This document shows positions 15,263 to 64,000 of a DNA stretch of 64,000 nt, piece after piece; the stretch's first letter is position 1, and every line of letters begins with the position of its first letter. The translations under genes were made by a program, and so were the position numbers. Under the pieces are notes generated by a model. The model did no database searches and was not told the origin of the DNA. It saw only the letters and a list, made by a program, of their open reading frames with translations. Location: assembly GCA_009829735.1 (NCBI GenBank), contig CM020618.1, positions 25,455,122 to 25,519,121 on the forward strand, in the 5' to 3' direction. Origin of the DNA: Pyropia yezoensis (lineage: Eukaryota > Rhodophyta > Bangiophyceae > Bangiales > Bangiaceae).

Positions 15263-15815
15263 TGCCGCTGCCGTCTCCGTCGCCGGCCGCGGCGTCGGTA
15301 CCCCAGGCCCGGACGTTGCCGACGCCCGCCCGCGCGCATGCCTTGATCAGTCCGTTGTACGAGCACCAGTCGGGGACGACGCCCGCGGCGGGCGTGGCTT
15401 CCCGCACCAGCTTGACGGCGACCGCCAGCCCAGCGGCGGCGGCCAGCCCCCCGTCGGCGGTGGCCGCCACGTCGAAGAGGGAGTTGTAGGTGACCACGTC
15501 AGGCGCCACGCCCGCCGCGGTCAGGCGGGAAAGAGTGGTCTGAGCCAGCGCCACGGCGTCCACGTCACCCCCCCGGTGGCAGTGCGCCTTGACCACCGCA
15601 TTGTAGGCAGGGAGCATTGCATGGGCAGGCAACGCTCGTGGCGTCGACGACGGGTTCCGCCCCTCGGTGACGGCGGCGGCGGCCATCGCGGTGGCCTCCG
15701 TGTCGGCCACAACCGCCTCGGCAACTGCCACCACCGCTGCCGCGGCCTCCCCGCCGCGCGGAAACGCCGCCACAGCCCGCGCCGCTGGCTTAAGGCATGA
15801 TACATCCTGATACAA
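13965..15815 (-). CDS. Pentatricopeptide-repeat (PPR) protein
   Basis: PPR motifs start near residue 69 (LPAYNAVVKAHCHRGG...LTAAGVAPD), followed by VVTYNSLFDVA...GVVPD and WCSYNGLIKACARAG. The third motif is split: its second helix (ALSIVHDALHQMRRAGLTPD) follows a Gly-rich insert encoded by the (GCC)n tract at 15222-15270. A fourth motif, GFTYQAMIGAAAAVGD, comes next. PPR proteins bind organellar RNA, so a mitochondrial or plastid role is expected. The start used is the first in-frame codon; the N-terminus has no clear transit peptide and an upstream exon is likely. After about residue 455 this frame turns Arg-rich, whereas other frames look more protein-like (PFDPPEGLKEGKAG near 14400; LQVVILLRAYLSARVGG near 13960). 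The true 3' end probably lies there, through frameshifts or introns. PPR identity is firm; boundaries are not. Confidence 0.75.
15222..15270. repeat. (GCC)n microsatellite inside the PPR gene
   Basis: About fifteen GCC triplets, encoding a Gly run on the minus strand. It falls between helix A and helix B of the third PPR motif. Confidence 0.9.
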
Positions 15816-21988: not shown

Positions 21989-24900
21989 ATGACCGGGGGG
22001 CGCTGGGGTCACCCAAGCAAGCCACCCCGGAGTACCGCGGGGAAAGCCCCACGGAGAGCGCGGTTGAGCCGACGCCGCATCAACCCCCGGGTACACCTTC
22101 CGGCCCCGACGACACGGCGTCAGGGGATTGATGACCAACCTCCAAGGTTGGGAGGAGAGGACGGGAAGCCCCGTCACGTTGAACCAGACAAGGGCCCTGT
22201 TCAGGATGCCCGAGCTACACCGGATATCGGTGTAGGACATGTGTTGTTTACCTTGGAGAACTTCAAGGTATCAGCCACCCTGGGGGTTGACCCCCAGTCG
22301 ACACGATCGTACTACCCTGTACTGGACACAGGGGCTGGACCCAACCTTATCCGGAAGGATACCCTCCCGGACAAGTGGCTTCCACGAGTCAGAGTGACTC
22401 GGGGACCCACCATCAAGGACGCGAATGGTCGACTCATTCGTACGACCGCAGCGATGTCGCTGCAGGTTACCATCGGGGATCTCACCACGGAAGTTGACTT
22501 CCTGGTATGTGAAACGCTATCGGTGCCCTGCATACTGGGGTGCACCTTCATCAACGTTCACGTTGATGCAATCCGGCCAGGCCGGAGGACCGTCGAGCTT
22601 CAAGAAGCCGACGGGACGAAGCGAGGACACACGGCTATCGTCAGGGACCTGACGCTACAAGGAAGCCACGTTAACGTGGCTGAGGTGTACGCAAGCGTCG
22701 AGCCGAAGACACTTCGGTTGGCCGAGCGAACTCGCTTTGAGCCGTTGTCAGAGACAGTCCTCCCGGTTAACTGCGACCTCGCAGGCATCTGCAGAGTCCA
22801 GTCCAACCTACGGACGTACAAGCGCCATGGGTTGACCATGGCCAACGGTCTCATAGACCTCCCAGCAGGAGGGTCGTCCCTCCTAGTGATGGCGAACTAC
22901 CGCCGTAAGGCAGTCACCCTCCCGAAGGGAACTATCCTCGGGATTGCCGAACTCTACGAAGGAGATACTCTTACCCCTGATAAGGAAGGTCAAGTGGAAC
23001 CACTTGAAGTACTGGCGGTCGCCGAGACCACCGAGCGACAGCAACCCGATGACGGGAAGCCTAACCCATCGGCGGCTCCGGCGGACCTGCCGCCAAAGGA
23101 CCAAGAGGCCTTGAAGGCACTGGCCGAGGCTGACCTCGACCACCTTCCCCCTTCGGTAGCCGAAGGGGTACGACGGATGCTAAGAAAGCATGACGTTATG
23201 TGGACAGGCGGGGCCTTGGGGACCATTGGGGCAACCCAACATCGTATAGACCTGGTACCAGGCGCACGACCCGCCCGCTCACAACCGCACCGAGCGGGAC
23301 CTATGCAACGAGAGATCGTTGATGGAGAAGTGAAGAGGATGAGTGAAGCTAAGGTGATCCGACCTTCGATGTCGGAATGGGGTGCCCCAGTCGTTATTGT
23401 GCCGAAGAAGGATCAAACCCCTCGGTTTTGCATCGATTATCGACGCCTCAACTTGGTTACCAAGAAGGACTCATACCCTTTACCAAGGATGGATGAATGC
23501 ATCGACTCCCTGGGGGAGGCTACGGTGTTTACCACCATCGACTGCAATGCCGGATACTGGCAGATCCCGGTGGCGGACGAGGATATCCCCAAGACGGCAT
23601 TCGTCTGTCACAGTGGAGTGTACGAGTTCCTAAGGATGCCCTTCGGATTGTCCAACGCCCCCGCTACATTCCAGCGGGCTATCGACATCATACTGTCTGG
23701 GGTGAAGTGGCGTAACTGCCTAGTGTACCTCGATGACGTCATCGTCTTCTCGCGTAACATGGATGACCATGTACAACATGTTGACGAGGTACTCACCCTC
23801 TTGAGGAACGCCGGGGTAACCCTGCGTCTGAAGAAGTGCGCCTTCTTCCAACAGACGGTCGAATATCTGGGCCACCAGATAACCCCTGGTAAACTAGGGG
23901 TACTCGAAGCCAATACCCGGGCACTCCGGGATGCCCGGTTCCCTAACACCCAGACGCAGCTCAAGAGCTTCCTGGGAATGTGCAATGTATACCGACGGTT
24001 CGTCAAGGACTTCGCTCGGATAGCTAAACCGTTAACGGTTCTTACGAGCAGTACCTTACCCAAGGTACTCCAACCCCCTTCGCCTAGCGAAGAGGAGGCA
24101 TTCGAGTCGCTGAAGCGAGCCCTACTAGCCCCACCCGTCCTTGCGTTACCGCATAGACGGGGTACCTTCGTCATCGATGTCGATGCGTGTGATACACAAG
24201 TGGGATGCACCCTGTTACAGGGAGAGACGTTGATCGGTACCGATAACGTTATCCCGGACCTACGTCCGGTAGGGTACTTCAGCCGGACACTCAACCCGGC
24301 TGAGCGGAACTATAGTGCCACCGAGCGTGAATGCCTCGGAGTTATATGGGCAGTGCAACTGCTCCGTCCATACCTGGAGGGCTCCAGGTTCATCGTGAGG
24401 TCCGACCACGAACCCCTACGATGGCTCCTCAACCTTGGTGACAAGGATTCCGATAGCCATGGGAGGCTAGCCCGATGGAGGCTGAAGATGGCCGAGCACG
24501 ACTACCGCACGGTGTATAAGGCTGGGTCAACCCACCACCTCGGAGACGCGTTGTCTCGACTCGACACCCCGAGCGGGGATACCCGCCCGGTGGACGAGGA
24601 CATCCCGGTAGTACCGGTGTGCATGGTGGGTAATGCTACCCAGGGTATGGCTGACCATACCATGGCACACCTTGCGTGCCCATTGACCCTCGCGGACTTC
24701 CGCGAGGCACAGGCCAACGACGATGACTGTAGACGTCATCGTGCTAACCTCCTGGCCGGTACGGCCGGCATCTTCTCCGAGAACGAAGACGGACTCATAT
24801 ACCGGCGGGCACCCGCCGATGGACGACATCAAGTCGTGGTTCCCGTGTCCTTACGGCAAGCCGTCATGGAACGAGAACATGAGAACCCTACAGCCGGACA

Positions 24901-26409
24901 CCCGGGGGTTCACGTATGTTCGCAGCAATGCGAAGGTTCTTCTACTGGCCAGCAATGGCCGTCGACGTGGTCGACCACGTAAGGGGATGCCACCCCTGTG
25001 CGCGTAACCGCATGAGTCTACATAGGCAGGCGTCTGCCATGAAGCTATTCCCACCCGATGGGCCCAACGAGCAAGTCGCTATCGACATACTCGGGCCACT
25101 TCCGGTAACGGAAGAAGGGAACAGGTACATCCTGGTCATGTCTGACCGATTCACCAAGCTGTCACGAGCGGCAGCCATCCCGAATGATACGGCATACACG
25201 ATTATGAACGCAGTGGTTGACCACTGGATCAGTGCATACGGAGTCATGAAGCAACTCCTCTCCGATAACGGAGCAAACCTTACGTCGGCATTCTGCACTA
25301 AGGTCCTGGGCATGTTCGGTATCGAACCACGTCGGGCATCCGACTACCACCCGCAGTCCAACGGGCAGGTGGAGCGGTTCAACCGCACCATCGTCAAGAT
25401 GCTACAGTGCTACGTGGCAGAGCACACGAACACTTGGGACAGGCTTCTGTCCGTACTCACCCTGGCATACAATGCCAGGCCACATCGGAGTACCAACATC
25501 GCCCCACTGGAATGGGTCATGCCACTAGGCGTCGGTAACCTGACGCTGCCGCCAGGCAGGTGCACTCGGTATGATACACCGAAGGGCCGACCCGCCGAAC
25601 GCATCCACCTAGCTTGGTTGGCCAAGCTATCGTGGATGATTCCTAAGCTCAAGGGTGCCCTTGACAGAACACAACTTCGATACAAGAAGAACTTCGACGC
25701 CCGACTACGGGTGCGCAACGCAACCCTGGTAACAGATGACTGGGTCTATATCAGACACCAGAAGTTCCGAGGGAACAAGCTTATGCAACCGGTCAAGGGA
25801 CCGTACCAGATCCTCCACAGAGATGACCACTCTGTTATCTTACACTCCGATACGGAGATCCAACGCATCAGTATGAATGATGTCACACCTGCTCCGAAGC
25901 CGGAACAGCCTCAGCCGGTACCGGCTGGGTTGCTACATGAAGCTCTTACAACCACGGCGGTACTCCGCCCGACGACGGGACACCTCACGCTCCCCACCCA
26001 CAGAGCCCCACTCTCGGGGACGACGGCCAACCGCCGCCGGCATCGGGTTACCGAACCACGGAGCAAGGACCTGAAGAGGGTCATGGATAACCATGGGAAT
26101 ACCCAGGTCAGGAACGGCCTCGGTGGACGCCCACCCATGGCAACTAGGCTCACCCGGCTGAGTACGCCGGACACGCAACGAGTGACGAGGCAAGGGGGAA
26201 GCCCCAGCCTGCGGGTCCCGGTACGGGGGAAGGGCCAACACCCCAGCCCAGTTCACGGCATCGTGAACAGCCAGCAGGGCTTCGAACTCCCGGGCCAACC
26301 CGGTCTTGGCAGCTATCAGATCCACGCCCAACTGCGCGATGTGCCGACGGACACCCGTCGGAAGATGAAACAGACGACCCTGCCGGCGGACGGACAGCAA
26401 GAAGGATGA
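21989..26409 (+). pseudogene. pol polyprotein (PR-RT-RH-IN), family D, one frameshift
   Basis: Two overlapping frames, 21989-24982 and 24916-26409. The first holds protease VLDTGAGPNL (about 22320), RT with FCIDYRRLN and YLDD (about 23727), an RNase H core FVIDVDACD (about 24170) and RSDHEPLRW. The second starts in the integrase zinc finger (GHPGVH in one frame, GCHPCARNR in the other) and continues with the catalytic core IDILGPLPV...SDNGAN...GQVERFNR (D, D, E) and a KGPYQIL module. A single-base change near 24915 breaks the frame; otherwise pol is uninterrupted, so the element is young. The last 450 bases overlap the antisense ORF. No chromodomain is recognisable. Confidence 0.9.
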
Positions 26410-27515
26410 AGCCTGCCCGAGGGTAACCTCAAGGGTGAAGGTACCCTGCAACGGGTGGACCGGTCGCGAGGCCAACACACTCCCGAAGTAGCGAAGACAG
26501 GAGCCGGTGTCAAACCGGAAAGCAGGGGCGGGTTCCCACCCCTCCTGCCATAGCGGCGGGCGCACGGGAGTGTATACCGGAGCACGACCGTTGCCGGTCT
26601 GCAACGCACACGTTATATCCGTGCGGAACGCATCGGCCATGACACCATGGTTACGTCGCCAACTCGACGCCGACTTCAACCCCGCCATGGGCGGGTAGGG
26701 AGCCGTCAACGACAGATACGGGGGTACCCCCGGGTAGTAGTCAAAGTCGGGATACCGACCGGTACGGCTCACCGTCTCCCAAAACGCAACCGGCTCCGCC
26801 GCCGCCGCAATCCCCGAGCACTAGCCGGGTAGTCAATCTCCCGCGGCAACGCGGGGGCAATCAGGTCGCAGACCCGAAGTTGGGGTCGAGGTAGACCTCA
26901 CCCCGTCCCACCCGGGTGCGCCAGAGCTGCGCATGCCGGTCGTCCCGGCTGACTCAGGATCCAATGGTGTTCCACCCGGACCGCGTTCGGCTGGTTGACC
27001 AGCCGCACCAACTCCCGCTCCCAGCACGGGTCCACCTTGACGCGCCGGGAGGATTCTCCACGGGGATGCACCAGGTGGAAGTCCACCCGCATACGCCCAT
27101 CGGACTCCATCGACTCTTGCACCGTGAGGCCTCGAACCTGAGCCACCAAGTCGGACACCGACATGGCGGGTTGACCCGCCGCCACGGCGACGCCGCCACC
27201 CAACGGGGCAACCCGGGCAGGACCAGGAAGAATCGGGGGCGCCGGGGGACGCACCACCGGCAGAGGGGCCGACGTCGGAGATGGACGAGGCCGAGGAGGA
27301 AGAAGAAGGGCGGGCGCCCGCCCGGAGTAACTCCCGGTGTCAACCGCCATGGGAGAAGGAGCGTCTTGACCGCTCGACGCCCGCGGCACCGCAGGTAAGG
27401 CACCGGCGCCGGCACCACCCGTCTGCGTAGCCCCCGCCTCGGAAGGGGAAGGCACTTGGACAGCCTCCGGAGCCGGAGCCCTGGCCGTGCGGACACCCGC
27501 ACCGTCTTGACCCGC
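25933..27515 (-). pseudogene. Antisense ORF (aORF) of family D, frameshifted
   Basis: Minus-strand coding signal convergent with pol. From the gap inwards it is Pro/Ala/Gly-rich (AVPRASSGQDAPSPMAVDTG), then RMRVDFHLVHPRGESSRRVK and VDPCWERELVRLVNQPNAVR, until TGA 26898. A long open part, 26772-25933, follows in another frame. In it, QGRLFHLPTGV...QLGVDLIAAKT...LLAVHDAVNWAGVL lines up by eye with RGMLWHLSPRL...QLTPQLVAEGC...MLRLHKFIEWESI of the family A aORF, and an LRYFGSVL / LDHFGSAML pair precedes it at similar spacing. At least two frame changes between 26900 and 26780. Function unknown. The N-terminus lies in the N gap. Confidence 0.6.
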
Positions 27516-28015
27516 NNNNNNNNNNNNNNNNNNNNNNNNNNNNNNNNNNNNNNNNNNNNNNNNNNNNNNNNNNNNNNNNNNNNNNNNNNNNNNNNNNNNN
27601 NNNNNNNNNNNNNNNNNNNNNNNNNNNNNNNNNNNNNNNNNNNNNNNNNNNNNNNNNNNNNNNNNNNNNNNNNNNNNNNNNNNNNNNNNNNNNNNNNNNN
27701 NNNNNNNNNNNNNNNNNNNNNNNNNNNNNNNNNNNNNNNNNNNNNNNNNNNNNNNNNNNNNNNNNNNNNNNNNNNNNNNNNNNNNNNNNNNNNNNNNNNN
27801 NNNNNNNNNNNNNNNNNNNNNNNNNNNNNNNNNNNNNNNNNNNNNNNNNNNNNNNNNNNNNNNNNNNNNNNNNNNNNNNNNNNNNNNNNNNNNNNNNNNN
27901 NNNNNNNNNNNNNNNNNNNNNNNNNNNNNNNNNNNNNNNNNNNNNNNNNNNNNNNNNNNNNNNNNNNNNNNNNNNNNNNNNNNNNNNNNNNNNNNNNNNN
28001 NNNNNNNNNNNNNNN
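27516..28015. other. Assembly gap (500 N)
   Basis: Exactly 500 undetermined bases, a typical placeholder length, so the real size is unknown. It hides the 3' end of family D and the junction to the Harbinger-like remnant. Confidence 0.99.
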
Positions 28016-28241
28016 GCGCAGCCTGCCCATTGGCTGCGTCGTCTGACTCAACCGGGTGGCGTGGCCGACCCATCCTGCCCATCGGCTGCGACGGCCGGCT
28101 CAGGGCCTCCCTCAGTGCTGTCTGTAGGCTGCCGCTCGTCATTCCCTGCATCCGCCACCACCGGCGCAGCATCGCCACCAGCTGCGCCTGCCCACTCAGC
28201 AACAGATCTCTCAGGGCTGACGGCGTCCGCCCGCAGCCTCG

Positions 28242-28535: not shown

Positions 28536-28549
28536 CTTAGTTGGCAGCC

Positions 28550-30489
28550 ATGGCGACTCCGGGAGTGAAGACGGACTCTCTTGACGAGCGCATGGAGGAC
28601 ACCTCCTACGGTGCAGCACCCGCCGGGACTTCCGGCGGGGGCTCCGCGATCGCTCCGGGGGACGGGACTCCCGCGTCGCCCGGCTTTGGGTTGACGGCCG
28701 GGTCTCCCCCGGAGGCGGGACAAGTTGTCCCGCGTGAGGCCTTGGGGCGGTGGTTTTGCCCCGCTTGGCCTCTCTAGGGAGGGGCTGACTGTTCTTCGCT
28801 GTGGCCGACTTGGCGCAGCGATGGGCCGGGTATGGGACCGCCTACGGGAGAAGTATCCCTGTAGGGTCGGGTTCCCTGCTGGCTTCAGGACGGACCAGTT
28901 TGCCTTCCTGGACGATGAGGAGGTTGAGGACGTTCAGCGTGCCAAGGCCATGGTGGACCGCGGTGGAACTATCCCGGGTCCCGGCGACTTGCCGACCTTC
29001 ACGTGGGACGCTGTGGCAACTTGCCCACCGCACCTCCACGAGGCCGATCCGCACACTCATCACTTTGATGTGCGGATGGAGAGAGACTTCCGGCGAGGTC
29101 CCTACTTGGTGACCTCGGCTCAATTTTAGTTTCCTCAACAGTCTGCTGCCAGTAAGGAGCAGTACTATCCGAAGAAGCCCGAGTGGTGGCCTCAAGTTGA
29201 GGTCCCCAACGGGTTCCCGGCGTTGTTGCCACGGTTGCTTGACCACTTCGGCTCCGTCATGTTGACGGCTGCCCCTGATCACCTGGTGTGGGCCATGGTG
29301 GCCACCCAGTGGCTCCTCGAGGTCGTGTCGACCTGAGTGTCCTGTGTTCAGCGGCGGGGGATCCTCTGGCATCTCCCCCTCCGGCTCCTCCAAGGTTTCG
29401 AACAGCTCACCCCTCAGCTAGTTGCCGAGGGGTGCTCATCAGGACAACTCACTCTACTTGAGGAGATGCTCCGGCTCCATAAGTTCATCGAGTGGGAGAG
29501 CATTGAGCACAAGTTGCGCCGCCCCACTCGTGGGCCAAGGACGATGGCGCACTTCGCCAGTTCGTGTGGTTCGCTCGTGAACTTCACGACGGCCGTGTGG
29601 TCCTACGAGAGGGGTTGGGCATCGGGGAGTACCCGTATGCCCCTGGGGTGGATCGCCACACTGCGCCACCCCGGACAAGCCCATAGTTATGGCCGTGCCG
29701 TCCTATGATGACCATATGACTCAACCCACTGCGGGGGCCCCAAGTCGGGGTCGCAGTTACACCCGGGTACCGCCACCTCGGCGGGCCCCTCCGCTTCCTC
29801 CTGTTCCTTTCCAACCTCACGGGAACATCCCGATCAGCGTGGCCGTGGAGTCTTCCACCCCGGTGTCCCCCAACTTGGGGGCCACCCTCCTGACGGTATA
29901 CCCCAAGTTGGTGTTGCCGCCCATGCCTCTAACCTCAGAGATGATGATCACCACGTTGGTGCGCACCATTTCCTGGTTGGCCACGTCGACCGCAACCCTA
30001 CAGAATTCCGAGACTCCTCAACTTGAGGAGCGCGTTCGTACTGGTGTGGCGACCGCGAGTTGCGAGTCGGTGGCGGAGTTTATGACAGCCGAGTTGGCTC
30101 GCATTGGGGCTATTATGCCCCAGCCAGCCCCACTTGGGCGTGGCAAGCGTCGCGCGAGCCGGGCATACTCGCCTCCTCACCGTCGTCGCCGACACTCGCG
30201 GCGCTCTCCTTCCGTATCGGAAGACGAGTTGTCTTACTCCGTTTCGGAGTCCTCTACCCCGTCGGAGACGGAGTCTGTCCAGCGTCTGCGTCGCAAACTT
30301 GCGCGCAAGACCAGGCAGAAGAGTAGCCACGGTCGGCGCCACTTGCGCGACCGTGAGGGGCGCGACGGTTCCGACTTCGAGCCGCCGCCCCCTCCAACAA
30401 GTGGAGACCGTTATCGGCGTGGGTCTCGCCGCTCGCCTCCACGTGAGGGCGAGGGACGTGGAGTGGGAGAGTCTAGCATGCGTGCCTAG
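28550..30489 (+). pseudogene. Antisense ORF (aORF) of family A copy 2, broken
   Basis: Plus-strand gene within the minus-strand element, ATG 28550 to TAG 30487-30489. Compared with copy 4: a 2-base deletion and TAG near 28775, GAG to TAG at 29127, TGG to TGA near 29333, and a later frame change. The last 266 codons (29689 on) are open. They end with the Arg/Ser-rich tail: RGKRRASRAYSPPHRRRRHS, SVSEDELSYSVSESSTPSET, and RYRRGSRRSPPREGEG. Its stop lies 111 nt from the end of pol, exactly as in copy 3, in convergent orientation. Product function unknown; the basic/Ser tail suggests nucleic-acid binding or nuclear-speckle-like targeting (inference). Confidence 0.8.
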
Positions 30490-36528: not shown

Positions 36529-36627
36529 GTTGGCTGACGATCCGTATGACACGGTCCAAGACCACCGTTCCTCTGAGGCAGAGGGCCCCCTACACCCGGG
36601 TGCACCCGGAGGTAAAGTTTACCTCTG

Positions 36628-36645
36628 TCCCCTGCTGCTCCACCA
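36628..36645 (-). other. Primer-binding site, family A copy 2
   Basis: Minus strand TGGTGGAGCAGCAGGGGA, starting 2 nt after the 5' LTR end. Would pair with a tRNA 3' end of sequence TCCCCTGCTGCTCCACCA; the tRNA is not identified. Confidence 0.85.
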
Positions 36646-36647
36646 AA

Positions 36648-37116
36648 TGTGGCAAAAACCACTAGCACACACGGCACCCAAGTTGGGGCGGTGTGCTAGG
36701 GCTGCCTCCCGTGTCGGGGGAACCGGAAGAAGTGCAAGTCGCACACACTCTGTCCCTGTTGTGGGGCAAACCCCCCACGGACAAACAAAAGGATGGTGTG
36801 TGGTCCAACAGTTTCTTCGTCGGGACGGGGACGCAGGGCCAAGCCCCGCTGTCCCTCCCCCTATCCCCCCAGGGTCCCCTCAGAATCTCGCCACTCAGAA
36901 TCTCCCACCCCAGCACCTGCCCACCGGGCCACACGAAAATTCAAGACGATAAATGCAGAAAACCCTCAAATCCAAGTTGGATTTACTTCTAAGCTAACTA
37001 TCCCAAACTTAGGGAATATGGACCCAAATGCAGGGGGAGGAACGGATCAGGCTAGTGGCCTGCCGCCCCTTGCATGGCACGTGTTGCCCCCCTACCTGGG
37101 GTTCAATACTGCCACA
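36648..37116 (-). repeat. 5' LTR of family A copy 2
   Basis: 469 bp, TGTGGCA...TGCCACA ends (7-bp perfect inverted termini), near-identical to LTRs at 50237, 59142 and 61743. Flanking 5 bp on the outside are AGCGT; the matching duplication is lost with the 3' end. Confidence 0.92.
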
Positions 37117-50236: not shown

Positions 50237-50705
50237 TGTGGCAAAAACCACTCGCACACGCGACACCCAAGTTTGGGCGGTGCGCAAGGGCTGCCTCCCG
50301 TGTCGGGGGAACCGGAAGAAGTGCAAGTCGCACACACTCTGTCCCTGTTGTGGGGCAATCCCCCCACTGACAAACAAGAAGATGGTGTGTGGGCCAACAG
50401 TTTCTTGGTCGGGACGGGGAAGCAAGGCCAAGCCCCGCTGTCCCTCCCCTTATCCCCCCAGGGTCCCCTCAGAATCTCGCCACTCAGAATCTCCCACCCC
50501 AGCACCTGCCCACCGGGCCACACGAAAATTCAAGACGATAAATGCAGAAAACCCTCAAATCCACGTTGGATTTACTACTAAGCTAACTATCCCAAACTTA
50601 GGGAATGTGGACCCAAATGCAGGGGGAGGAACGAGTCAGGCTAGTGGCCTGCCGCCCCTTGCATGGCACGTGTTGCCCCCCTGCCTGGGGGCCAATACTG
50701 CCACA
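50237..50705 (-). repeat. 3' LTR of family A copy 3
   Basis: 469 bp, TGTGGCA...TGCCACA. Adjacent to the polypurine tract, so it is the 3' LTR of the minus-strand element. Confidence 0.93.
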
Positions 50706-50718
50706 CTCCCCTCTCCTC
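50706..50718 (-). other. Polypurine tract of family A copy 3
   Basis: Minus strand GAGGAGAGGGGAG directly abutting the 3' LTR; primes plus-strand DNA synthesis. On the plus strand it reads ctcccctctcctc followed by AG, a perfect-looking splice acceptor for a transcript running into the aORF. Confidence 0.85.
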
Positions 50719-51040
50719 AGTTCCGACCGACCCGGTCGGCCCTGCGAGGGGGCGTAGGAACGCACATCGCGGCGTTGGGGGCGCGACTTGCTGTCCCCCT
50801 GATACGTCACGTGGACGTGGAGGCGGTCACGTTGACCGCCCCTCTTCTCACGCTTGCCCACTTGGCAGCTTGCTCTTATCGGTACTCACCTTACCACCAC
50901 CAACACATCCTCTTCACCTTACCCTGGGCCGCCCCACGCTGGGGAGGCCACCCATCTACCCGCGATCCAAGCCCCCCTCAACTCGAGGTGGGTCTCGTGC
51001 AACTGCAACCAGGTCGTCTCTCCCTAACATGGGGAGAGCC

Positions 51041-52984
51041 ATGGTGACCCCGGGGGTGAAGACTGACTCCTTGGACGAGCGTATGGAGGACACGTCCTAC
51101 AATGCAGCGCCCGCCGGGACTTCCGGCGGGGGCTTCGCGATCGCTACGGGGGATGGGACGCCCGCGTCACCCGGCTTTGGGTTGGCGGCGGGATCTCCCA
51201 CGGAGGCGAGCCGCGTTGTTCCACGAGAGGCCTTGGGGCGGTGGTTTTACCCCGCTTGGCCTCTGTATGAGGAGGGGTTGACGGTTCTCCGCTGTGGCCG
51301 ACTTGGCACAACGATGAGTCGCGTATGGGACCGCCTACGGGAGAAGTTCCCCCGTAGGGTCGGGTTTCCTCCCGACTTCAGGACGGACCAGTTTGCCTTC
51401 CTGGATAAGGACGAGGTCGAAGACGTGCAGCGGGCCAAGGCCATGGTGGACCGCGGGGGTACTATCCAGGGCACTGGCGACGTGCCAACTTTCACTTGGG
51501 ATGCGGTGGCAACTCGCCACCCGTACCTTCGCGACGTCGATCCGCACACTCATCACTTTGATGTGCGGATTGAGAAGGACTTCCGGCGGGGTCCCTACTT
51601 GGTGACGACGGCTCAACTTGAGTTTCCGCAGCAGTCACCTGCTAGCAAGGAGCAGTACTATCCCAAGAAGCCCGAGTGGTGGCCTCAAGTCGAGGTCCTC
51701 TACGGGTTTCCGGCGTTACTTCCACGGTTGCTCGATCACTTCGGCTCCGCCATGTTGGCGGTAAGCCCGGACCACGTGGTGTTCGCCATGTTGGCAACCC
51801 AGTGGCTCCTCGAGGTCATGTCGACCTGGGTGTCTTGTGTCCAGCGGCGGGGGATGCTCTGGCATCTCTCCCCCCGGCTTATCCAAGGATTGGAACAGCT
51901 CACCCCTCAGCTAGTTGCTGAGGGGTGCCCATCAGGACAGCTCACTCTCCTTGAGGAGATGCTCCGCCTCCACAAGTTTATCGAGTGGGAGAGCATTGAG
52001 CACAAGTTGCGCCGTCCCACTCGTGGGCCCAAGGACGATGGCGCACTTCGCCAGTTCGTCTGGGTCGGTCGTGAACTTCACGACGGCCGTGTGGTACTCC
52101 AAGAGGGGCTGGGCATCGGGGACTAGCCGTTTGCCCCGGGGATAGAACGCCACACTGCGCCTCCGCCGGACAAGGCAATCGTGGTGGCCGTGCCCTCCCA
52201 CGATGGCTATGTGACTCAACCCACTGTGGGGGCCCCGAGTAGGGGTCGCAGCTACTCTCAGGCTCCGCCTACTCGGCGAGCCGCTCCGCTTCCTCCTGTT
52301 CCATTTCAGCCGCACGGGGACATCCCGATGAGCGCTGCCGCTGAGTCGTCCGCTCCGGTGTCCCCCAACTTGGGGGCCACCCTCCTCACGGTCTATCTCA
52401 AGTTGGTACTGCCGGCCACGCCCTCAGCCTCCGAGATGATGATCACCACGTTGGTGCACACCGTTTCCTGGTTGGCCGCGTCGGCTGCAACCCTTCAAGT
52501 TTCCGAGACTCCTCAACTTGAGGAGCGCGTTCCTACTGTTGTGGCGACCGCGAGTTGCGAGTCGGTAGCGGGGTTCATGACGACCGAGTTCGCTCGAATT
52601 GGGTCGATTGTGCCCCAGCCGGCCCCACTTGGGCGCGGCAAGCGTCGGGCGAGCCGGGCATTTTCGCCTCCTCGCCGTCGTCGCCGTCACTCGCGGCGAT
52701 CTCCCTCCGTGTCGGAAGACGAGTTGTCTTATTCGGTCTCGGAGTCCTCTACTCCGTCGGAGACGGAGTCGGTCCGGCGTCCGCGTCGCCAACTTGCGCG
52801 CAAGACCAAGCAGAAGAGTAGCCGCAGTCGTCGCCACTTGCGCGACCGTGAGGGGCGGGACGGTTCCGACTTGGAGCGGCCGCCCCCGCCGAAGGGTGGG
52901 GAACGTTATCGGCGTGGGTCTCGCCGCTCGCCTCCACGTGAGGGCGAGGGCCATGGTGTTTGGGAGTCTAGCATGCGTGCCTAG
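51041..52984 (+). pseudogene. Antisense ORF (aORF) of family A copy 3, one stop
   Basis: ATG 51041 (gagccATGG; another in-frame ATG at 51029 is not conserved in copy 4) to TAG 52984: 647 codons with one internal stop, TAG 52124-52126, where copy 4 has TAC. Layout: Gly/Ser/Pro-rich N-terminus (about 1-60); a folded-looking core (about 60-360) with PREALGRWFYPAWPLYEEG, RVWDRLREKFPRRVGF, HTHHFDVRIEKDFRRGPYLV and RGMLWHLSPRLIQGLEQLTP; a Pro-rich linker; a helical stretch (SEMMITTLVHTVSWLAASAA); an Arg/Ser-rich tail (RRRRRHSRRSPSVSEDELSY, RYRRGSRRSPPREGEGH). Lies between pol and PPT, convergent with pol, 111 nt apart. No known family recognised. Confidence 0.8.
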
Positions 52985-53095
52985 TTGACAGCTGCCTTTG
53001 TTGTGAGAGTATGTGGGTTAGGGCTGTAGTCAAAAGCCACTCTGCGTACCACTGCGACTTGAAGCACTCTCTTGGCACTGTCATTTGGCCTTCCC

Positions 53096-56000
53096 TCACG
53101 TTGAGGGAGGGCAGTTAGGGTCGATATCATTCCGGGCGCAGTATGCCCGGACATTCTCAGCGGGAAGGTCCTCCACGTATTCCCAGGTATCATCCTTCGC
53201 CTATTAGCCGAACCAACGCACCCTCAACATGAGGCGGTCAGTGTCTTCATCCCACCCGTGGTCGATGAACTTATCGAACACCTACTCCTGCGGGCCCTGT
53301 TTGGCCGCAGGTAGCGAAGGCAGGCGCCACGCGTTCAGCGCACGCGCCCAATCCGGGTCGCCTGCAGGAGGTGGTGCAACTTTTACCACGTCCTGTCCCT
53401 TTACTGTGCGGACCCCATCGTCACTTTCGATGGTGAACCGCCGTCCATCTGTACGAAGGACCTGGTATGCCCCCTTCGTCTGGAACACCAACTTACTCCC
53501 AGTTGGGGTGTGTGAGTGAGCCAGTACCTAGTCACCCTACTCGGGGACGTGCGTGGCGTTACGCCCCTTTTTGTCAAAAGTACGCTTGTAGCGCTTTTGC
53601 GCTTTGTCCATCTCAGCCCTGACTTTAGGGATGAGGTTTTCAAGCCTAGCGGCGAACTCCGCCTTACTCTCAGTAGGAGTAGGCGTACTGCCACCATCCT
53701 CCCTAGTTGGGAGCGACCGCCGCACGGCAATAGACCACACGCGACGGGGGGTCACAAAAGCGAGGGGTACTTCCTTGGTAGATAAGTGAACCTGCGAATT
53801 GTAGGCGGTCGTAAGAATAGAAATGTATTGGTCCCACGTCTTCACGTGCTCACTCACATAGTGGCGCAGCTGCCGAACAATAGTTTTGTTGAAGCGCTCC
53901 ACCTGCCCATTAGTTTGTGGGTGGTAGGGGGTGGCGTAGTTTGCCTTAACCCCCAACATATCCAGCACTCCCTGAAACAGTACAGACGCAAATTGCGGTC
54001 CATTGTCCGATAGTGTACTGTCCGGCATGCCATACGCGGCAACCCAGTGATCTAGGAAGGCTGACACGACCGACATGGCCGTGATCTCTGCCAGAGGGAT
54101 TGCTCGCGTAAGTTTCGTGAAGCGATCGCAGATGACCAGGAGGTACTGGTTGCCCTCCTCGGTCACTGGCAGGGGCCCAAGGATTTCCATTACCAACGCG
54201 GCAAAAGGCTCCTTGGCCGAGAACAGTAACATAGCCGTAGTAAGCCGCCGTTCCATCAGACGGTTCTGCGCACAACTTGTGCAGGCAGCAACCCAACTGT
54301 AGATGTCCACCACCATGGACGGCCAGTAGTACCTGGTCTTCAGTGTCTGGTACAATTTACTAGACCCCAGGCGTCAACCTGTGGGAGCGTTATGCTCCCT
54401 CTCACGGATACTGCCCTTGAGGGACGCGGGGACGACAAGCTGTTCGGTCCCCTGAGCTACCCCCCTCCTCAAGAGGGGGCCATTGTCTTCGATGAAAAAC
54501 CGCGTCGCCGCCACCGTATCTAGCGTATCCCTCGGCGACTTGCAGAAGGAGTCTTCGGCCTGGGCCTTCACCACCTCGTCCAGGGACAGGGGCAAGTATT
54601 TCTTGGTCCCTGGCGCCTCGGGGTCCAACGCCTGACCCGAGCGCGTGACTACCCCCACAATGGGGATGTCATCATCGACTGAGTTAGTGTCCAGCCTCTC
54701 GGTAGGTACCCGAGAAAGGCTGTAGGCTAGGGCATGTTGCCTGCCAGGTCGGTAATCAATATCAAAGTTGAAGGGTGCCAGTCGCACCCTCCACCTGTTG
54801 AGGCATGTGTTCGTGCAATCCGTCTTAAAGATGAACTGCAACGCGCGGTGGTCACAGCGGATGAGGACTTTCTCACCCTCTAGGTAGTGAAGAGGTGACG
54901 TCACCGCTCACACCACTGCGAGTCCTTCCAACTCGGTGACTCCATAGTTCTTCTCAGCCGAGTTCAGCCCCTTGCTGAAGTATCCTACCGGCAAGTACTC
55001 CTTGTCCGGCTGCTGCTGAAGCAACACACGACCAAGTTGGTCGTAGCAAGCATCCACGTCTAAGATGTAGTGGCCTCCCAACCTAGGAATAGCCAAAATA
55101 GGGGGCTTCAGCAGGAGGTCCCGAAGAGTCTCAAAGGATTCCTGCTCCACCCGACTTGGGGGAGGCAGGTTCTTCGGTAGCGTCGAGCTAACTAGCTCAT
55201 CCAGCGGCTTCGCCACCTTGGCTAAGCCCTTGGTGAAACGTCGGTACACGTGACACATCCCGAGCGAGCTCCTCATCTGGGTCTGGGTCCGGGGGTACTG
55301 AGCCTGACGGATGGCTCTCAAGTTCTTCTCGTTGTCACTGAGGCGCCCCGGACGGACAACATGTCCCAAGTACTCCACCTCCTGAGTAAAGAGGTGGCAC
55401 TTGCTCGCCTTCAGTGACACACCGGCGTCAGCAAGTAGCTTAAACACCTGGCCAAGATGGCTAATGCGCTGCTTCGGACTTCGAAAGAACACAATGATAT
55501 CGTCTAGGTACACAACACAGATGTGCAACTGTACTCCGGCCAGAATCATGTCCATGGCGCGCTGGAAAGTTGCCTGCGCGTTGCACAGTCCGAACGGTAG
55601 TCGTTTGCACTGGTAGGTACCACAGTGACAGGTAAAGGTAGTTTTATGCCTGTCTTCCGGGGGAATGGGAATTTGCCAATACCCCGCGCTAAAGTCTAGG
55701 GTAGAGAACACGTTTGCCTCCCCCAGAGAGTCTAGACAGTCGTCCATCCTAGGGAGGGGATAACTATTCTTCACCGTGCTCTCGTTGAGCTTACGGTAGT
55801 CGATACAGATTCGTGGGGTCCCATCAACCTTGGGAACAATGACCACCGGACTCGCCCACTCGACGTTACTGGGCTCAAGCACATCGAGGGCCTCCATGCG
55901 AGCGACTTGCTCCTTGACGAGGGCCCTTGAACGGGGCCCCCCCCTGTACGGTTGTTGGCGTATAGGGGGAGCACCGGGTTTCAACTCGATCCGGTGTTCG

Positions 56001-57079
56001 GTGGCTCTCATGAGTCCCAACTGACCATCCAACAACTTGTGATATTGCTCCAAGAGGCGTTCAACTTGAACCCTCAACCTGGGTGGAACATTCTCCATAT
56101 TCACGTGGGGCCGAGAAGAGGCGGCTGGCTTGGCATGGTTCTTCTCCTTTCGTGACTTCCGGTCGCTACTCGCTCCCGCGTTGAGGGTGACCGCTACTAC
56201 TCGTCCCTCATGTTGGTCGATGTAGCCGAACTTGGCTCCCGACTTGAAGTACTTGGGCGAAGAGCTCAGGTTCACCACCTGAACCTTCCACGGGACTCCG
56301 GCTTTGGAGTCCATCGTGCCAAGGGCAACATGCACTTGGTGCTTGCGAGCAAGACGGGTGTTAGGGTGCATCAACCCGCTCCCCGTATAGTCAGTTACAA
56401 CGTCAACGTGTGCCACCGAGTTGGGAGGCGACATGACCTTACGGGCTAAACGCAGGGTAGCAGTAAACCCTTCTCTCACGGAGCAAACAGGCTTCGACTG
56501 TGAGAGTGTCACGGGAGGCACAGACGTTCCCTTACTAAGGATGGGGATGGTCTCCCCTTTCATGAACTTGACGCAATACTCCGGGCCACAAATCAGGGGC
56601 TCTTGTGTTACAACATAAGGGGTACCCAGAAGCAGGGGTACCGATATATTCTCAACTACTCCATAGGTCACTTCGACCTCATGTTCTCCCAACCTAGTTG
56701 TTAGGGTCACGGCACCAACAATGGGAAGTACCCCACCATTGATGTCAATCATATGATCGGCCTTAGACCTCCGGCGTTAGAGCTTCATCTCCTTTGGTAA
56801 TAGCGACTTGCGTATCAAGGAGGCTCCTGACCCGGTATCAAGTACGATACGGGCACAACAGGCACGGCCGGGGGCTAGTTGCTCCCGGCCAGCCACCTGG
56901 AAGTTCTCACCCGTCAGCACCGCGATGACCCGACGTGGGTTTACGTTCTTGGGGAGTCCTACCCGAGGTGAGCGGACTCCCTTAGGTCGCCGCAGTATCC
57001 GGCAGGGTTGGTTTGCCCTCTTGACCCACTTGGCCGAGGCTGCCGTGGTGACCTCAGGACGGCCAGCTCCAACGGTCAT
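53096..57079 (-). pseudogene. pol (PR-RT-RH-IN-chromodomain), family A copy 3, stops only
   Basis: A single frame from ATG 57079 (ATGA overlap with gag) to TGA 53096, interrupted by nonsense codons: TAA near 56777, TGA near 54905 (TGG in copy 2), TGA 54374 (GGA in copy 2), two TAG at about 53537 and 53528, TAG near 53282, and TAA-TAG inside the chromodomain (near 53205). Domains as in copy 2: LDTGSGASLIRK protease, YLDDIIVFF in RT, ILDVDACYDQLG RNase H, integrase MEILGPLPV...SDNGPQF...GQVERFNK, KGAYQVLRTD and the chromodomain. The first catalytic-core block reads MEILGP, with MDILGP in copy 2, so the first catalytic Asp is changed to Glu. Not functional as it stands. Confidence 0.92.
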
Positions 57080-59022
57080 TCGTTTTCCGCCGACTTGGCC
57101 TCGGAATCCGAGGGCGAAGGGGAAGACGACGAGTCCGAGGACGACGTGTCCGCCCCTTCCGTCGAGGGTGTGGTGACCACCACTACCGGTCGGGGTCCAC
57201 CCACGCGGCGTGAACGTACTTCGTTCGAAGCCGACTTCTTACTCGCATTCTTAACGAGTTGTTGAATGCGTTTACTCAACATAGGGCAATTATATGCCCA
57301 GTGTCCATCGGAGTTGCAGTTCCAGCACCGATGGTCAGTTCCCGGAGGAGTCTTCCCGACTTGGGAAGTAGATGAGGCACCCTCGGAAGTTCCCACGGCA
57401 GGTACTACCTTATCCTTGCGGATTCGGCGTGTCTCTCGTAGCTCTCGGGCCTGGCGCGCCTCTTCTCGTTCTTTGGCCAACTCGGCCTGACGCTCCTGGC
57501 GTTGCTCCTCCCGCAACTTGCGGTAGGCCTTACCTCTGCGATAGGCAAACCTGGCCAACTCGGATAGTGTCGCCCGGGCAGTATTACGCTCCCGGCTCTC
57601 CATACGGACTGACCAATGGAGTCCCTCCACAAACCGACTCTTCACCACAGCTTGTGGATGAAGAAAGCCACAGAGATTGTTGAGCTTTCGAACCCGCTCC
57701 GCAGAGGACAACTCGTCCTCAGTCTCTTCCTGATGGGCTCGCGTAAACTTCTTGACTTGAGAAGCCAACGCTGCTTCATCCACCATGGCTCTCAACAACC
57801 ATTTGACGAGCTCCAAGTAGGACGTAGCCTCACCAGCGCCTGCACTTGAGGAACTGGGCATGACGGACATAAGTTCTGTCCGGAGGTCGCCCTTGGTAAA
57901 CTCCTGTCGCATGTAAAAAGCCATGCCTTCACTTATGGCAGTGTCGTCACAGGCTTTTGTGAAACGACGTAGAAACTCAAAGACACGGAGGGGGGGGGTT
58001 CCATCCCGCTCCGCTTTGTGCCCAAAAGAGTGAAGTGCATTCTTCTTGGCACGGCCCATAGCTCGGGCCTGAATAGGACCGTACGCCACCGACTTGTTGT
58101 GGAGGGCGTAGGTCTCACAGTCAAAGATCCTCTGGTAGACCGGGTTGGCTACCTGGATCTTGGGCGGCACCTCACGTTGAGGGAAAAGCCGCTGGGGCAA
58201 TGGGGTGAGTTGACCCACTGTGCCAGTTGTCTGCCGCGGCGAGCTTGGTGTAGCCACCGGCGTTTCCGAGGGGAACTCCCCCGTAAAGGGCGCCCGCCCC
58301 ACCGAGAATGGTGTGGCTCCCTCGTTGGGAGTCACAGGGGTCGCCCCCGGTTCGGTGCGACCCGAGACAGGCGTAGGGAGGGATTCCCCCTGCGTCTGAG
58401 GGCTCGAAAGCCCCAATCCGGTCTGGACATTGAGACCATCTGGCAAACTTGCCACAATCTGATTCAAAATAGTATTCGTCATCGTGACCACCAGGTCCGG
58501 CGAAGTCTGCCGCAACACATTGGTCGCCTTCCGACAGACAGTTCCCGCGAGGAGTGGATTATCGACTCAAGTTGAGTCTCGGTCTGCCTCCGGGAGTCCA
58601 CCTGAGGGGTAAACACGATCCTCAGGGGCCTCAACCGGGGGCATGGGCGCGAGCCCATCGCCGACCAACGGAGGTCCGCCGTCCTCCAAAAGCCTAGTTG
58701 GCGACGGCTCCAAGGCAAAGTTGGCTCCAACCCGAGTGGATCCCGCGGAGACAGTCCTTTCACCTCGGGACGTTTCCGTTAAGTGTACCACACTGTGGCC
58801 GGACTTCGGCCCACCCACATCAGAAGTGTCACCCGAGTGAACTCCCGACTGAGTCGGGGTGGCCTGTTCCCCGCCCGCACCTCCAGTCCTGCTGGGTTGA
58901 GGGACCTCTAGTCCCTCTGCGACCCCAGGTAAACCCACCTGTGTCTCACCAGTATTCAAAGGCACTGAAGTACGTGCGTCACCCGTGTACTCCCCGGACG
59001 ACGGGGGGTCCGAGCTAGCCAT
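57076..59022 (-). pseudogene. gag, family A copy 3, one stop
   Basis: ATG 59022 in the conserved gctaacATGGCT context. One in-frame TGA near 58567-58569 (GGA in copy 2, a G-to-T change) separates an N-terminal disordered part from an open 480-codon core. The core includes PLRVFEFLRRFTKACDDTA, ERVRKLNNLCGFLHPQ and the CCHC knuckle CWNCNSDGHWAYNCP. The end AKSAENE overlaps the pol ATG. Otherwise collinear with copy 2. Confidence 0.9.
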
Positions 59023-59121
59023 GTTGGCTAACGATCCGTATGACACGGTCCAATTCCACCGTTCCTCTGAGACAGAGGGCCCCCTACACCCGGGTACACC
59101 CGCAGGAAACGTTTTCCTCTA

Positions 59122-59139
59122 TCCCCTGCTGCTACACCG
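59122..59139 (-). other. Primer-binding site, family A copy 3 (two mismatches)
   Basis: Minus strand CGGTGTAGCAGCAGGGGA, 2 nt inside the 5' LTR; differs at two positions from copies 1 and 2. Confidence 0.75.
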
Positions 59140-59141
59140 AA

Positions 59142-59611
59142 TGTGGCAAAAACCACTCCCACACGCGACACCAAAGTTGGGGCGGTGCGCAAGGACTGCC
59201 TTCCGTGTCGGGGGAACGGGAAGAAGTGCAAGTCGCACACACTCTTTCCCTGTTGTGGGGCAATCCCCCCACTGACAAACAAGAAGATGGTGTGTGGGCC
59301 AACAGTTTCTTGGTCGGGACGGGGAAGCAAGGCCAAGCCCCGCTGTCCCTCCCCTTATCCCCCCAGGGTCCCCTCAGAATCTCGCCACTCAGAATCTCCC
59401 ACCCCAGCACCTGCCCACCGGGCCACACGAAAATTCAAAACGATAAATGCAGAAAACCCTCAAACCCACGTTGGATTTACTACTAAGCTAACTATCCCAA
59501 ACTTAGGGAATGTGGACCCAAATGCAGGGGGAGGAACGAGTCAGGCTAGTAACCTGCCGCCCCTTGCATGGCAAGTGTTGCCCCCCTACCTGGGGGGTTA
59601 ATACTTCCACA
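59142..59611 (-). repeat. 5' LTR of family A copy 3
   Basis: 470 bp, TGTGGCA...TTCCACA; the terminal TGCCACA has one change. Followed by GCCAT. Confidence 0.93.
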
Positions 59612-62553: not shown

Positions 62554-64000
62554 ATGGCGACTCCGGGAGTGGAGACGGACTCTCTCGATGAGCGTATGGA
62601 GGACACCTCCTACGGTGCAGCGCCTGCCGGGACTTCCGGCGGGGGCTCCGCGATCGCTCCGGGGGGTGGGACTCCCGCGTCACCCGGCTTTGGGTTGACG
62701 GCAGGATCTCCCCCGGAGGCGGGACAAGTTGTCCCGCGTGAGGCCTTGGGGCGGTGGTTTTACCCCGCTTGGCCTCTGTATGAGGAGGGGTTGACTGTTC
62801 TTCGCTGTGGCCGACTCGGCGCAGCGATGGGTCGGGTATGGGACCGCCTACGGGAGAAGTATCCCCGTAGGGTCGGGTTCCCTGCCGGCTTCAGGACGGA
62901 CCAGTTTGCCTTCCTGGACGACGAGGAGGTCGAGGACGTGCAGCGGGCCAAGGCCATGGTGGACCGCGGGGGAACTATCCCGGGTCCCGGCGACTTGCCG
63001 ACCTTCACTTGGGACGCGGTGGCAACTCGCCCCCCGTACCTTCACGAGGCCGATCCGCACACTCATCACTTTGATGTGCGGATGGAGAAGGACTTCCGGC
63101 GAGGTCCCTACTTGGTGACCTCGGCTCAACTTGAGTTTCCTCAGCAGTCTGCTGCCAGTAAGGAGCAATACTACCCGAAGAAGCCCGAGTGGTGGCCTCA
63201 AGTTGAGGTCCCCTACGGGTTCCCGGCATTGTTGCCACAGTTGCTTGACCACTTCGGCTCCGTCATGTTGACGGCTGGCCCTGATCATCTGGTGTGGGCC
63301 ATGTTGGCCACCCAGTGGCTCCTCGAGGTCATGTCGACCTGGGTGTCATGTGTTCAGCGGCGGGGGATGCTCTGGCATCTCCCCCTCCGGCTCATCCAGG
63401 GTTTGGAACAGCTCACCCCTCAGCTAGTTGCTGAGGGGTGCTCGTCAGGACAACTCACTCTACTTGAGGAGATGCTCCGCCTCCACAAGTTTATCGAGTG
63501 GGAGAGCATTGAGCACAAGTTGCGCCGCCCCACTCGGGGGCCCAAGGACGATGGCGCACTTCGCCAGTTCGTGTGGGTCGCTCGTGAACTTCACGACGGC
63601 CGTGTGGTCCTACGAGAGGGGTTGGGCATCGGGGACTACCCGTATGCCCCGGGGGTGGATCGTCACACTGCGCCACCCCCGGACAAGCCCATAGTTATGG
63701 CTGTGCCCTCATATGATGACCATATGACTCAACCTACTGCGGGGGCCCCAAGTCGGGGTCGCAGTTACACCCGGGTACCGCCACCTCGGCGTGCCCCTCC
63801 GCTTCCTCCTGTTCCTTTCCAGCCTCACGGGAACATCCCGATCAGCGTGGCCGTGGAGTCATCCACACCGGTGTCTCCCAACTTGGGGGCCACCCTCCTG
63901 ACGGTATACCCCAAGTTGGTGTTACCGCCCACGCCTCTAACCTCAGAGATGATGATCACCACGTTGGTGCGCACCATTTCCTGGTTGGCCGCGTCGACCG
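62554..64000 (+). CDS. Antisense ORF (aORF) of family A copy 4, open (partial)
   Basis: ATG 62554 (gagccATGG), open for all 482 codons to the window edge; by comparison with copy 3 about 165 more codons, including the Arg/Ser-rich tail, should follow. Reads MATPGVETDSLDERMEDTSY at the start and contains the core blocks seen in copy 3: PREALGRWFYPAWPLYEEG, HTHHFDVRMEKDFRRGPYLV and LLEEMLRLHKFIEWESIEHK. At the three sites where copies 2 and 3 have stops it has sense codons (TAT, GAG, TAC). This is the best template for the protein. A 343-nt leader separates it from the LTR, starting with the PPT complement. No homology to env, protease inhibitors or other known families recognised. Confidence 0.8.
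   Translation, partial: MATPGVETDSLDERMEDTSYGAAPAGTSGGGSAIAPGGGTPASPGFGLTAGSPPEAGQVVPREALGRWFYPAWPLYEEGLTVLRCGRLGAAMGRVWDRLREKYPRRVGFPAGFRTDQFAFLDDEEVEDVQRAKAMVDRGGTIPGPGDLPTFTWDAVATRPPYLHEADPHTHHFDVRMEKDFRRGPYLVTSAQLEFPQQSAASKEQYYPKKPEWWPQVEVPYGFPALLPQLLDHFGSVMLTAGPDHLVWAMLATQWLLEVMSTWVSCVQRRGMLWHLPLRLIQGLEQLTPQLVAEGCSSGQLTLLEEMLRLHKFIEWESIEHKLRRPTRGPKDDGALRQFVWVARELHDGRVVLREGLGIGDYPYAPGVDRHTAPPPDKPIVMAVPSYDDHMTQPTAGAPSRGRSYTRVPPPRRAPPLPPVPFQPHGNIPISVAVESSTPVSPNLGATLLTVYPKLVLPPTPLTSEMMITTLVRTISWLAAST

What the first reader, a model, noticed from the sequence alone, without database searches (positions are those of the whole stretch)
50237..59611. Chromovirus-like retrotransposon with a ~647-codon gene on the opposite strand between pol and the 3' LTR
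The PPT, PBS and TSDs fix the orientation of copy 3 as minus, yet between pol and PPT lies a long plus-strand ORF (51041-52984). It is present at the same place in copies 2 and 4 and is unbroken for 482 codons in copy 4. Pol and aORF stops are 111 nt apart in both complete junctions. Antisense ORFs in the pol-3' LTR interval are known from some plant LTR elements, but I recognise no relative of this protein. A conserved core plus Arg/Ser-rich tail suggests an RNA or chromatin function, for example regulation or export of element RNA (inference).
Basis: partly seen in the sequence, partly recalled or inferred. Interest (0 to 1): 0.88.

Follow-up and report, generated by a model that had tools for sequence, protein, structure and literature searches.

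The report
Selected antisense gene in seaweed retrotransposons
Several related families of jumping genes in the nori seaweed genome carry a long protein gene written backwards next to their own genes, and natural selection has kept that protein intact, so it very probably helps the elements in a way nobody has yet explained.

Summary
Copy 3 (50237-59611) is a minus-strand Ty3 element; a plus-strand ORF lies between pol and the 3' LTR. Corrections: copy 3's ORF has a TAG at codon 362 and copy 2's is broken. Copy 4 continues past the window to 647 codons. Two capped searches list 142 places with the gene in the genome, which matches Pyropia yezoensis.

It is a real gene. Between two subfamilies it shows 60 synonymous and 10 nonsynonymous changes (omega 0.05, 95% 0.02-0.09; pol tail 0.03). 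Older pairs give 0.18-0.24 (pol 0.07-0.14), a decayed pair 0.80. Three more Ty3 families here (F2-F4) have a distantly homologous antisense gene in the same slot; F4 gives omega 0.11-0.16. F4 relatives occur in Pyropia vietnamensis.

So this looks like an old accessory gene of one Ty3 clade in Bangiales red algae. No member has a Pfam match over cut-off or a solved relative. Function is inferred: a trans-acting accessory protein, perhaps nuclear. No expression data or structure prediction was available. Antisense genes in this slot are known from plants and fungi; my paper searches listed none from red algae.

The parts
50237..50705 (-). 3' LTR of copy 3 (family F1)
   Evidence: Boundaries TGTGGC...GCCACA, purine tract adjacent; repeat D1
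50706..51040 (+). leader between 3' LTR and the aORF start codon; candidate antisense promoter and 5' UTR (inferred)
   Evidence: Position only; 343 nt in copy L003. Between L003 and L042 a 270-nt leader stretch diverges 7.4%, a 415-nt stretch that is mostly LTR 1.4%
51041..52984 (+). antisense accessory gene (aORF) of copy 3; in-frame TAG at codon 362
   Evidence: omega against copy 4 = 0.23
52985..53095 (.). 111-nt gap between the convergent aORF and pol stops
   Evidence: same gap in L003, L007, L013
53096..56752 (-). pol of copy 3, broken by stops and frameshifts; integrase, RNase H, RT, weak C-terminal chromodomain
   Evidence: chromodomain tested on the homologous tail of L003
57076..58518 (-). 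gag ORF with CCHC zinc knuckle
59142..59611 (-). 5' LTR of copy 3; TSD GCCAT flanks the element
62554..64000 (+). aORF of copy 4, open to the window edge; 647 codons in the genome (L003)
28549..30489 (+). decayed aORF of copy 2
21989..26409 (+). pol of a second Ty3 family (F2), in two overlapping ORFs of different phase
25933..26772 (-). F2 aORF remnant, homologous to the F1 aORF and antisense to F2 pol
   Evidence: BLASTP E = 2e-9 for the single comparison
26898..28202 (-). upstream part of the F2 aORF in another phase, with a 500-base N run at 27516-28015
   Evidence: its sequence recurs in the open copy L064

Best explanation
The ORF is a genuine protein-coding accessory gene of the retrotransposon, encoded on the strand opposite gag-pol and convergent with pol. 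It was probably acquired once in the ancestor of a Ty3 clade of Bangiales red algae and inherited with the elements since (shown: coding and selected in F1 and F4, homologous genes in four families of one RT group; the single origin is the simplest reading). It must be transcribed from a promoter in or next to the 3' LTR, giving an antisense mRNA (inferred). Its product, a conserved core with a basic tail in F1 and F3, most likely acts in trans as an accessory protein, probably in the nucleus on element RNA or DNA or on a host silencing factor (inferred). Confidence is about 0.97 for 'selected element gene', about 0.93 for 'shared by the clade', and about 0.4 for the nuclear accessory role; the figure below is for the whole.
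For: Selection in F1: L003 v L042 Sd 60, Nd 10, omega 0.05 (95% bootstrap 0.02-0.09); 43 diagnostic subfamily differences, 38 synonymous; pol tail of the same pair 0.03; copies 3 and 4, chosen by position, 0.23. Decayed pair L036/L037 gives 0.80 with differences 27/27/30 by codon position, so mutation bias alone does not create the pattern. Independent family F4: omega 0.11, 0.16, 0.13 with dS 0.66-1.21. Homology F1-F2 1.4e-9, F1-F4 9.7e-9, F1-F3 9.6e-6, F3-F4 4.6e-11, each above the best of 100 local shuffles; F3 query finds F4 copies genome-wide at 1.7e-19; profile comparison gives the same register for F1 v F4, E 8.1e-5 at hhalign probability 61%. Position and orientation: 51 of 75 F3/F4-clade integrase hits have the gene on the opposite strand downstream within 7 kb, most at about 1.53 kb; 2 have it on the same strand and 6 upstream. 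RTs of F1-F4 are 56-77% identical to each other and 39-45% to the canonical chromoviruses sampled. Other species: P. vietnamensis relatives 46-47% identical to F4 over 90-94%.
Against: No transcript, protein or localisation data. No Pfam match over a cut-off and no PDB match better than E 0.49; structure prediction could not be run. In older pairs the aORF is less constrained than the pol tail: 0.18-0.24 against 0.07-0.14. F1's RS-dipeptide content is not above shuffles, its basic cluster is only mildly unusual (25 of 500 shuffles as high), and F2 and F4 tails are nearly neutral, so a shared nuclear or RNA-binding tail is not shown. F2 v F3 is not significant and F2 v F4 is marginal (0.001) and not significant by profile comparison (E 0.24). 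Copies used for omega were retrieved by protein similarity (except copies 3 and 4), which can lower omega somewhat; F2 and F3 were not measured. 24 of 75 F3/F4 integrase hits have no listed aORF downstream. The F4 copy L082 has no ATG at the start shared by its relatives.
Confidence: 0.55

Rival explanations
1. Chance open frame or captured passenger with no role.
For: The genome is GC-rich and long ORFs are common on both strands. Copy 2 is broken and copy 3 has a stop.
Against: Omega 0.05 in F1 and 0.11-0.16 in F4; the other frames hold 12 to 25 stops; homologous gene in four families in the same slot.
Confidence: 0.02
2. The antisense RNA, not the protein, is what matters (for example double-stranded RNA that limits the element's own copy number); coding is incidental.
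For: Convergent genes 111 nt apart would give overlapping transcripts. Non-coding antisense roles are discussed for other elements (PMC7264820, passages read).
Against: Selection acts on amino acids: 61 of 70 differences between L003 and L042 fall at third positions.
Confidence: 0.05
3. Envelope-like or structural particle protein placed in antisense.
For: The pol-3' LTR slot is where env-like genes sit (PMC7264820 passages).
Against: No strongly hydrophobic segment: highest 19-residue Kyte-Doolittle mean 1.23-1.44 in the four families. Env-like genes are described in sense orientation in that review.
Confidence: 0.08
4. Anti-silencing protein that blocks host repression of the element, rather than a regulator of the element's own RNA.
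For: Fast divergence of the core between families (21-26% identity in the four significant pairs) while RT stays at 56-77%, as expected in a conflict; many near-identical F1 copies, 142 places listed, point to recent spread.
Against: Nothing direct. Within subfamilies the gene is strongly conserved, which fits many other roles.
Confidence: 0.25

Closest known systems
Antisense aORFs of plant Retand, Grande and RIRE2 elements (TRP28 domain in Retand)
   Same: Long antisense ORF between pol and 3' LTR, kept across copies and species, function unknown; Grande's protein is nuclear and its region is antisense-transcribed (PMC11963269 abstract, passages and discussion; PMC7264820 passages).
   Different: No TRP28 (PF04195) match in the 24 members scanned or in the genome (whose control also rang nowhere). 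Red alga, not flowering plant. The elements carry a weak chromodomain, whereas Retand is described as non-chromovirus.
brtn of Boty (BcGypsy1) in Botrytis cinerea
   Same: Antisense additional gene in a Ty3 element (mentioned in PMC7264820 and PMC8365987; passages read).
   Different: No sequence comparison was made; the original paper was not looked up and not read.
HBZ of HTLV-1 and other retroviral antisense genes
   Same: Antisense gene, with an antisense promoter inside the 3' LTR in HTLV (PMC7264820 and PMC11963269 passages).
   Different: No sequence relation tested; promoter and splicing untested here. A working analogy only.
Canonical chromoviruses of the same genome (pol 1186 and 1255 aa classes)
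   Same: Ty3 pol with integrase and chromodomain.
   Different: Strong chromodomain (about 55 bits); 39-45% RT identity. No F1-F4 aORF match (tblastn E <= 0.01) in the 1.6 kb read behind pol of L072 nor in L065; but L065 is interrupted by an F1 insertion about 370 nt behind pol, and neither copy was read to an identified 3' LTR, so absence of the gene is suggested, not shown.

Membership tests
antisense aORF of the pol-3' LTR interval (aORF-3R) | lies between pol and the 3' LTR | tested here: met
   F1; F3/F4 spacing behind integrase (their 3' LTRs were not mapped)
antisense aORF of the pol-3' LTR interval (aORF-3R) | opposite strand to gag-pol | tested here: met
   Purine tract, TSD and domains fix the orientation; 51 of 75 opposite strand downstream against 2 same strand in F3/F4
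antisense aORF of the pol-3' LTR interval (aORF-3R) | kept in most copies, not a one-off capture | tested here: met
   F1: 48 of 79 pol tails have it listed; 8 of 8 sampled from the other 31 hold it. F3/F4: 51 of 75
antisense aORF of the pol-3' LTR interval (aORF-3R) | transcribed in antisense | not testable with these tools
   No RNA data
Retand TRP28 antisense proteins | Transposase_28 domain PF04195 | tested here: not met
   0 of 24 members match at E <= 5; none in F1 or F2-F4; 0 matches in the genome (control silent too)
chromovirus | chromodomain at the integrase C-terminus | tested here: inconclusive
   Chromo 21.9 bits in F1 and 20.4 in F3, cut-off 25.1
chromovirus | RT falls within the chromovirus clade | not tested
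   No external reference RTs used; in-genome identities only, no tree built
envelope-like protein | transmembrane segment | tested here: not met
   Highest 19-residue hydropathy 1.23-1.44 (simple scale only)
SR-type protein | RS-dipeptide domain beyond composition | tested here: not met
   F1 3 dipeptides against shuffle mean 3.4; of F1-F4 only F3 exceeds whole-protein shuffles, 15 against at most 10, and not within-window shuffles (442 of 500 as high); one fragment, P0011, is high (9; 1 of 500 within-window)

The most novel reading that the evidence does not exclude
A Ty3 clade of red algae independently evolved, or captured from an unknown source, an antisense accessory protein under selection approaching that on pol. 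It would be a third origin, besides flowering plants and fungi, of the same genome layout, and would make the antisense slot before the 3' LTR a general place where LTR elements keep a trans-acting control or anti-silencing protein.
Probability: 0.45. Interest if true: 0.8.

Novelty: new variant of a known kind. Interest (0 to 1): 0.64.

Why it matters
The two papers on plant antisense aORFs that I read in part (PMC7264820, PMC11963269) treat their function as unknown. Here codon-level selection shows that the protein matters in two families, with a decayed pair as neutral control, in elements with many near-identical copies. It gives a set of intact, recently inserted copies and a homologous protein family in a cultivated seaweed, so expression, localisation and partners can be tested. 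If the layout arose separately in plants, fungi and red algae, it points to a common need of LTR elements.

Tried and rejected
Chance openness and passenger: rejected by omega and by stops in the other frames. Sense-strand coding in the same stretch: rejected, 12, 25 and 18 stops in the three sense frames; the low omega of one sense frame (0.16) is the mirror of the third positions, and that frame has 25 stops. RS-domain reading of the F1 tail: tested and not supported. Envelope: no hydrophobic segment. TRP28 membership: no match. Solved structures: two chance-level matches, E 0.49 and 1.8, to the F1 protein, none to the profile. Two single-protein homologue searches found only P0002, a 97% identical fragment; the alignment of four families reached 20 more. 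Bacterial-type promoter and terminator scans and a tRNA scan of the window gave nothing useful. Structure prediction never ran. A pol class of mostly 1371 aa (integrase about 47% to F3) was not resolved: no letters could be fetched. My first reading that both canonical chromovirus classes lack the gene was too strong and was cut back.

Rows dropped before counts: one search used 79 of 132 pol-tail rows (those at the top score) and 142 distinct aORF places (88 plus 54 of the 113, the other 59 being the same places); one search used 75 of 131 integrase rows (the 56 rows at 47-48% were left out). Codons that are stops in either copy were skipped in the codon counts.

Papers: PMC11963269 abstract, passages and discussion; PMC7264820, PMC8365987, PMC7423979, PMC3350952, PMC2864245 passages; the rest search listings. 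10.1007/s10709-012-9654-9 was not held. That 'lgn' means Logan is recalled.
Full report
What the window holds. The window is G000:C1:25455122-25519121 of a genome with 11 contigs, 107.5 Mb in all; three contigs are 43.6, 34.3 and 29.4 Mb. These sizes equal the three chromosomes of Pyropia yezoensis (PMC7423979, passages), and a EukProt protein of 204 aa is 99% identical to part of a family F4 product (P0006). I take the host to be this red alga. Copy 3 is a Ty3 element on the minus strand: LTRs 50237-50705 and 59142-59611, TSD GCCAT, purine tract beside the left LTR, gag with a zinc knuckle, RT, RNase H and integrase. Its pol is broken and its aORF has a TAG at codon 362. Pol and aORF stops are 111 nt apart in copy 3 and in L003, L007 and L013.

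The ORF is a gene. In copy L003 (window copy 4 carried on into the genome) the frame runs 647 codons from ATG; the other five frames of the stretch have 12 to 25 stops. One search scored 88 copies, none with a stop in the 482-residue query; together give 142 distinct places. These lists are ranked by protein similarity and capped, so they are a lower bound on copies and no measure of intactness. To escape that bias I took pol tails: of 79 with the top score, 48 have a listed aORF at the expected offset, and of the remaining 31 I read eight at the expected place; all eight are aORF DNA at 99% or more, seven open over the 301 bases read and one shifted by an indel.

Selection. Nei-Gojobori counts between subfamilies L003 and L042 give 60 synonymous and 10 nonsynonymous changes, omega 0.05 (95% bootstrap 0.02-0.09), with differences 3, 6 and 61 by codon position. 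Of 43 diagnostic differences between the two subfamilies 38 are synonymous. The adjoining 528-nt pol tail of the same pair gives 0.03. In older pairs with L003 the aORF gives 0.18-0.24 where the pol tail gives 0.07-0.14, so the aORF is constrained but less than pol. Window copies 3 and 4, which were not picked by protein score, give 0.23 (0.17-0.31). Two old copies that have decayed, L036 and L037, give 0.80 (0.50-1.36) with 27, 27 and 30 changes by position: neutral decay here does not mimic selection.

Relatives. The window itself holds a second Ty3 family (F2, pol 21989-26409 on plus) with a minus-strand ORF overlapping the end of that pol reading that matches the F1 protein at 25% (E 2e-9); the window copy is broken there, an open copy is L064, and the search scored 139 places. 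Two more families were found by reading downstream of RT hits: F3 (L066, 987 aa) and F4 (L071, 628 aa). Homology is clear for F1-F2, F1-F3, F1-F4 and F3-F4, marginal for F2-F4 and absent for F2-F3 by direct comparison; each was set against 100 local shuffles. Profile comparison agrees in register for F1 v F4 (E 8.1e-5, hhalign probability 61%) and F3 v F1 (4.6e-4, 33%), but is not significant for F2 v F4 (0.24). In whole-genome searches F4 finds F3 (3.7e-18) and F3 finds F4 (1.7e-19); neither lists F1 or F2 places that I recognise. F4 subfamilies give omega 0.11, 0.16 and 0.13 at dS 0.66 to 1.21.

One clade. RTs of F1 to F4 share 56-77% with each other and 39-45% with the canonical chromovirus classes sampled (identities, no tree). 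Integrase hits of the F3/F4 clade have the gene downstream on the opposite strand in 51 of 75 cases, most at about 1.53 kb (F4) and six at about 2.71 kb (F3), against 2 on the same strand and 6 upstream; 24 of 75 have none listed. Canonical chromoviruses: no F1-F4 aORF match in the 1.6 kb behind pol of L072, nor in L065, but L065 is interrupted by an F1 insertion about 370 nt behind pol. Their lack of the gene is therefore suggested, not shown. Beyond this species the profile found Pyropia vietnamensis proteins of 619 aa (74 cluster members) and 984 aa, 46-47% identical to F4, a JGI cluster of 577 aa (65 members, 41%), and fragments from other sources; 20 proteins in all at E <= 0.1. Of the eleven read, five begin MAD as F4 does; the F4 copy L082 lacks that ATG.

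What it may do. No member has a Pfam match over the curated cut-off or a convincing solved relative. There is no hydrophobic segment typical of an envelope. F1 and F3 end in basic tails (net +17 over 150 aa), F2 and F4 do not; of the four families, RS dipeptides exceed whole-protein shuffles only in F3. The core diverges far faster than RT. I therefore hold that the protein acts in trans for the element, most likely in the nucleus, either on the element's own nucleic acid or against host silencing. The antisense transcript, its promoter and the place of action are not shown.

Compared with what is known. Antisense ORFs between pol and the 3' LTR are known from Grande, RIRE2, Retand and PvRetro13 of plants and Boty of Botrytis (PMC7264820 passages), and 97% of Retand clusters studied encode TRP28 (PMC11963269). 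The layout is therefore known. The protein family and the host group did not turn up in the listings of my 10 paper searches. A 2012 survey reported no retrotransposon chromodomain in this species from the sequences then available (PMC3350952 passages).

Limits.

Noticed in passing
L066:2-1789 (+), pol of family F3: Behind a weak chromodomain the F3 polyprotein matches PF05869, DNA N-6-adenine methyltransferase (Dam), E 2.7e-7 at residues 447-516.
   Followed up: no
G000, 56 integrase rows: A further high-copy Ty3 class (pol ORF mostly 1371 aa, integrase 47-48% to F3) whose pol-3' LTR interval could not be read; it may or may not carry the gene.
   Followed up: partly
places such as C1:15609916-15610680 and C3:12196346-12196876: Weak matches (25-30% identity, E about 3e-9 to 4e-5) with open frames of 533 to 1289 codons that may be additional aORF families.
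   Followed up: partly
P0005 (Pyropia vietnamensis, 984 aa): The public gene model appears to fuse an aORF to other sequence, weakly like glycosyltransferase 61 (E 0.026, below cut-off); such aORFs are named there as hypothetical proteins.
   Followed up: no
window 27516-28015: A run of 500 N inside the F2 antisense ORF, probably an assembly gap.
   Followed up: no
window 36608-36648 and 59101-59141 (minus): Candidate primer binding sites next to the 5' LTRs of copies 2 and 3 begin ATTTGGTGGAGCAGCAGGGG and TTCGGTGTAGCAGCAGGGG; the primer tRNA was not identified.
   Followed up: no
L065:1680 onward: An F1 element is inserted about 370 nt behind the pol stop of a canonical chromovirus.
   Followed up: no
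window 13965-15815 (-) and 3566-6262 (+): Host-like genes: a pentatricopeptide repeat protein (PPR_2 E 1.3e-11) and a DEAD-box helicase (E 3.7e-9).
   Followed up: no
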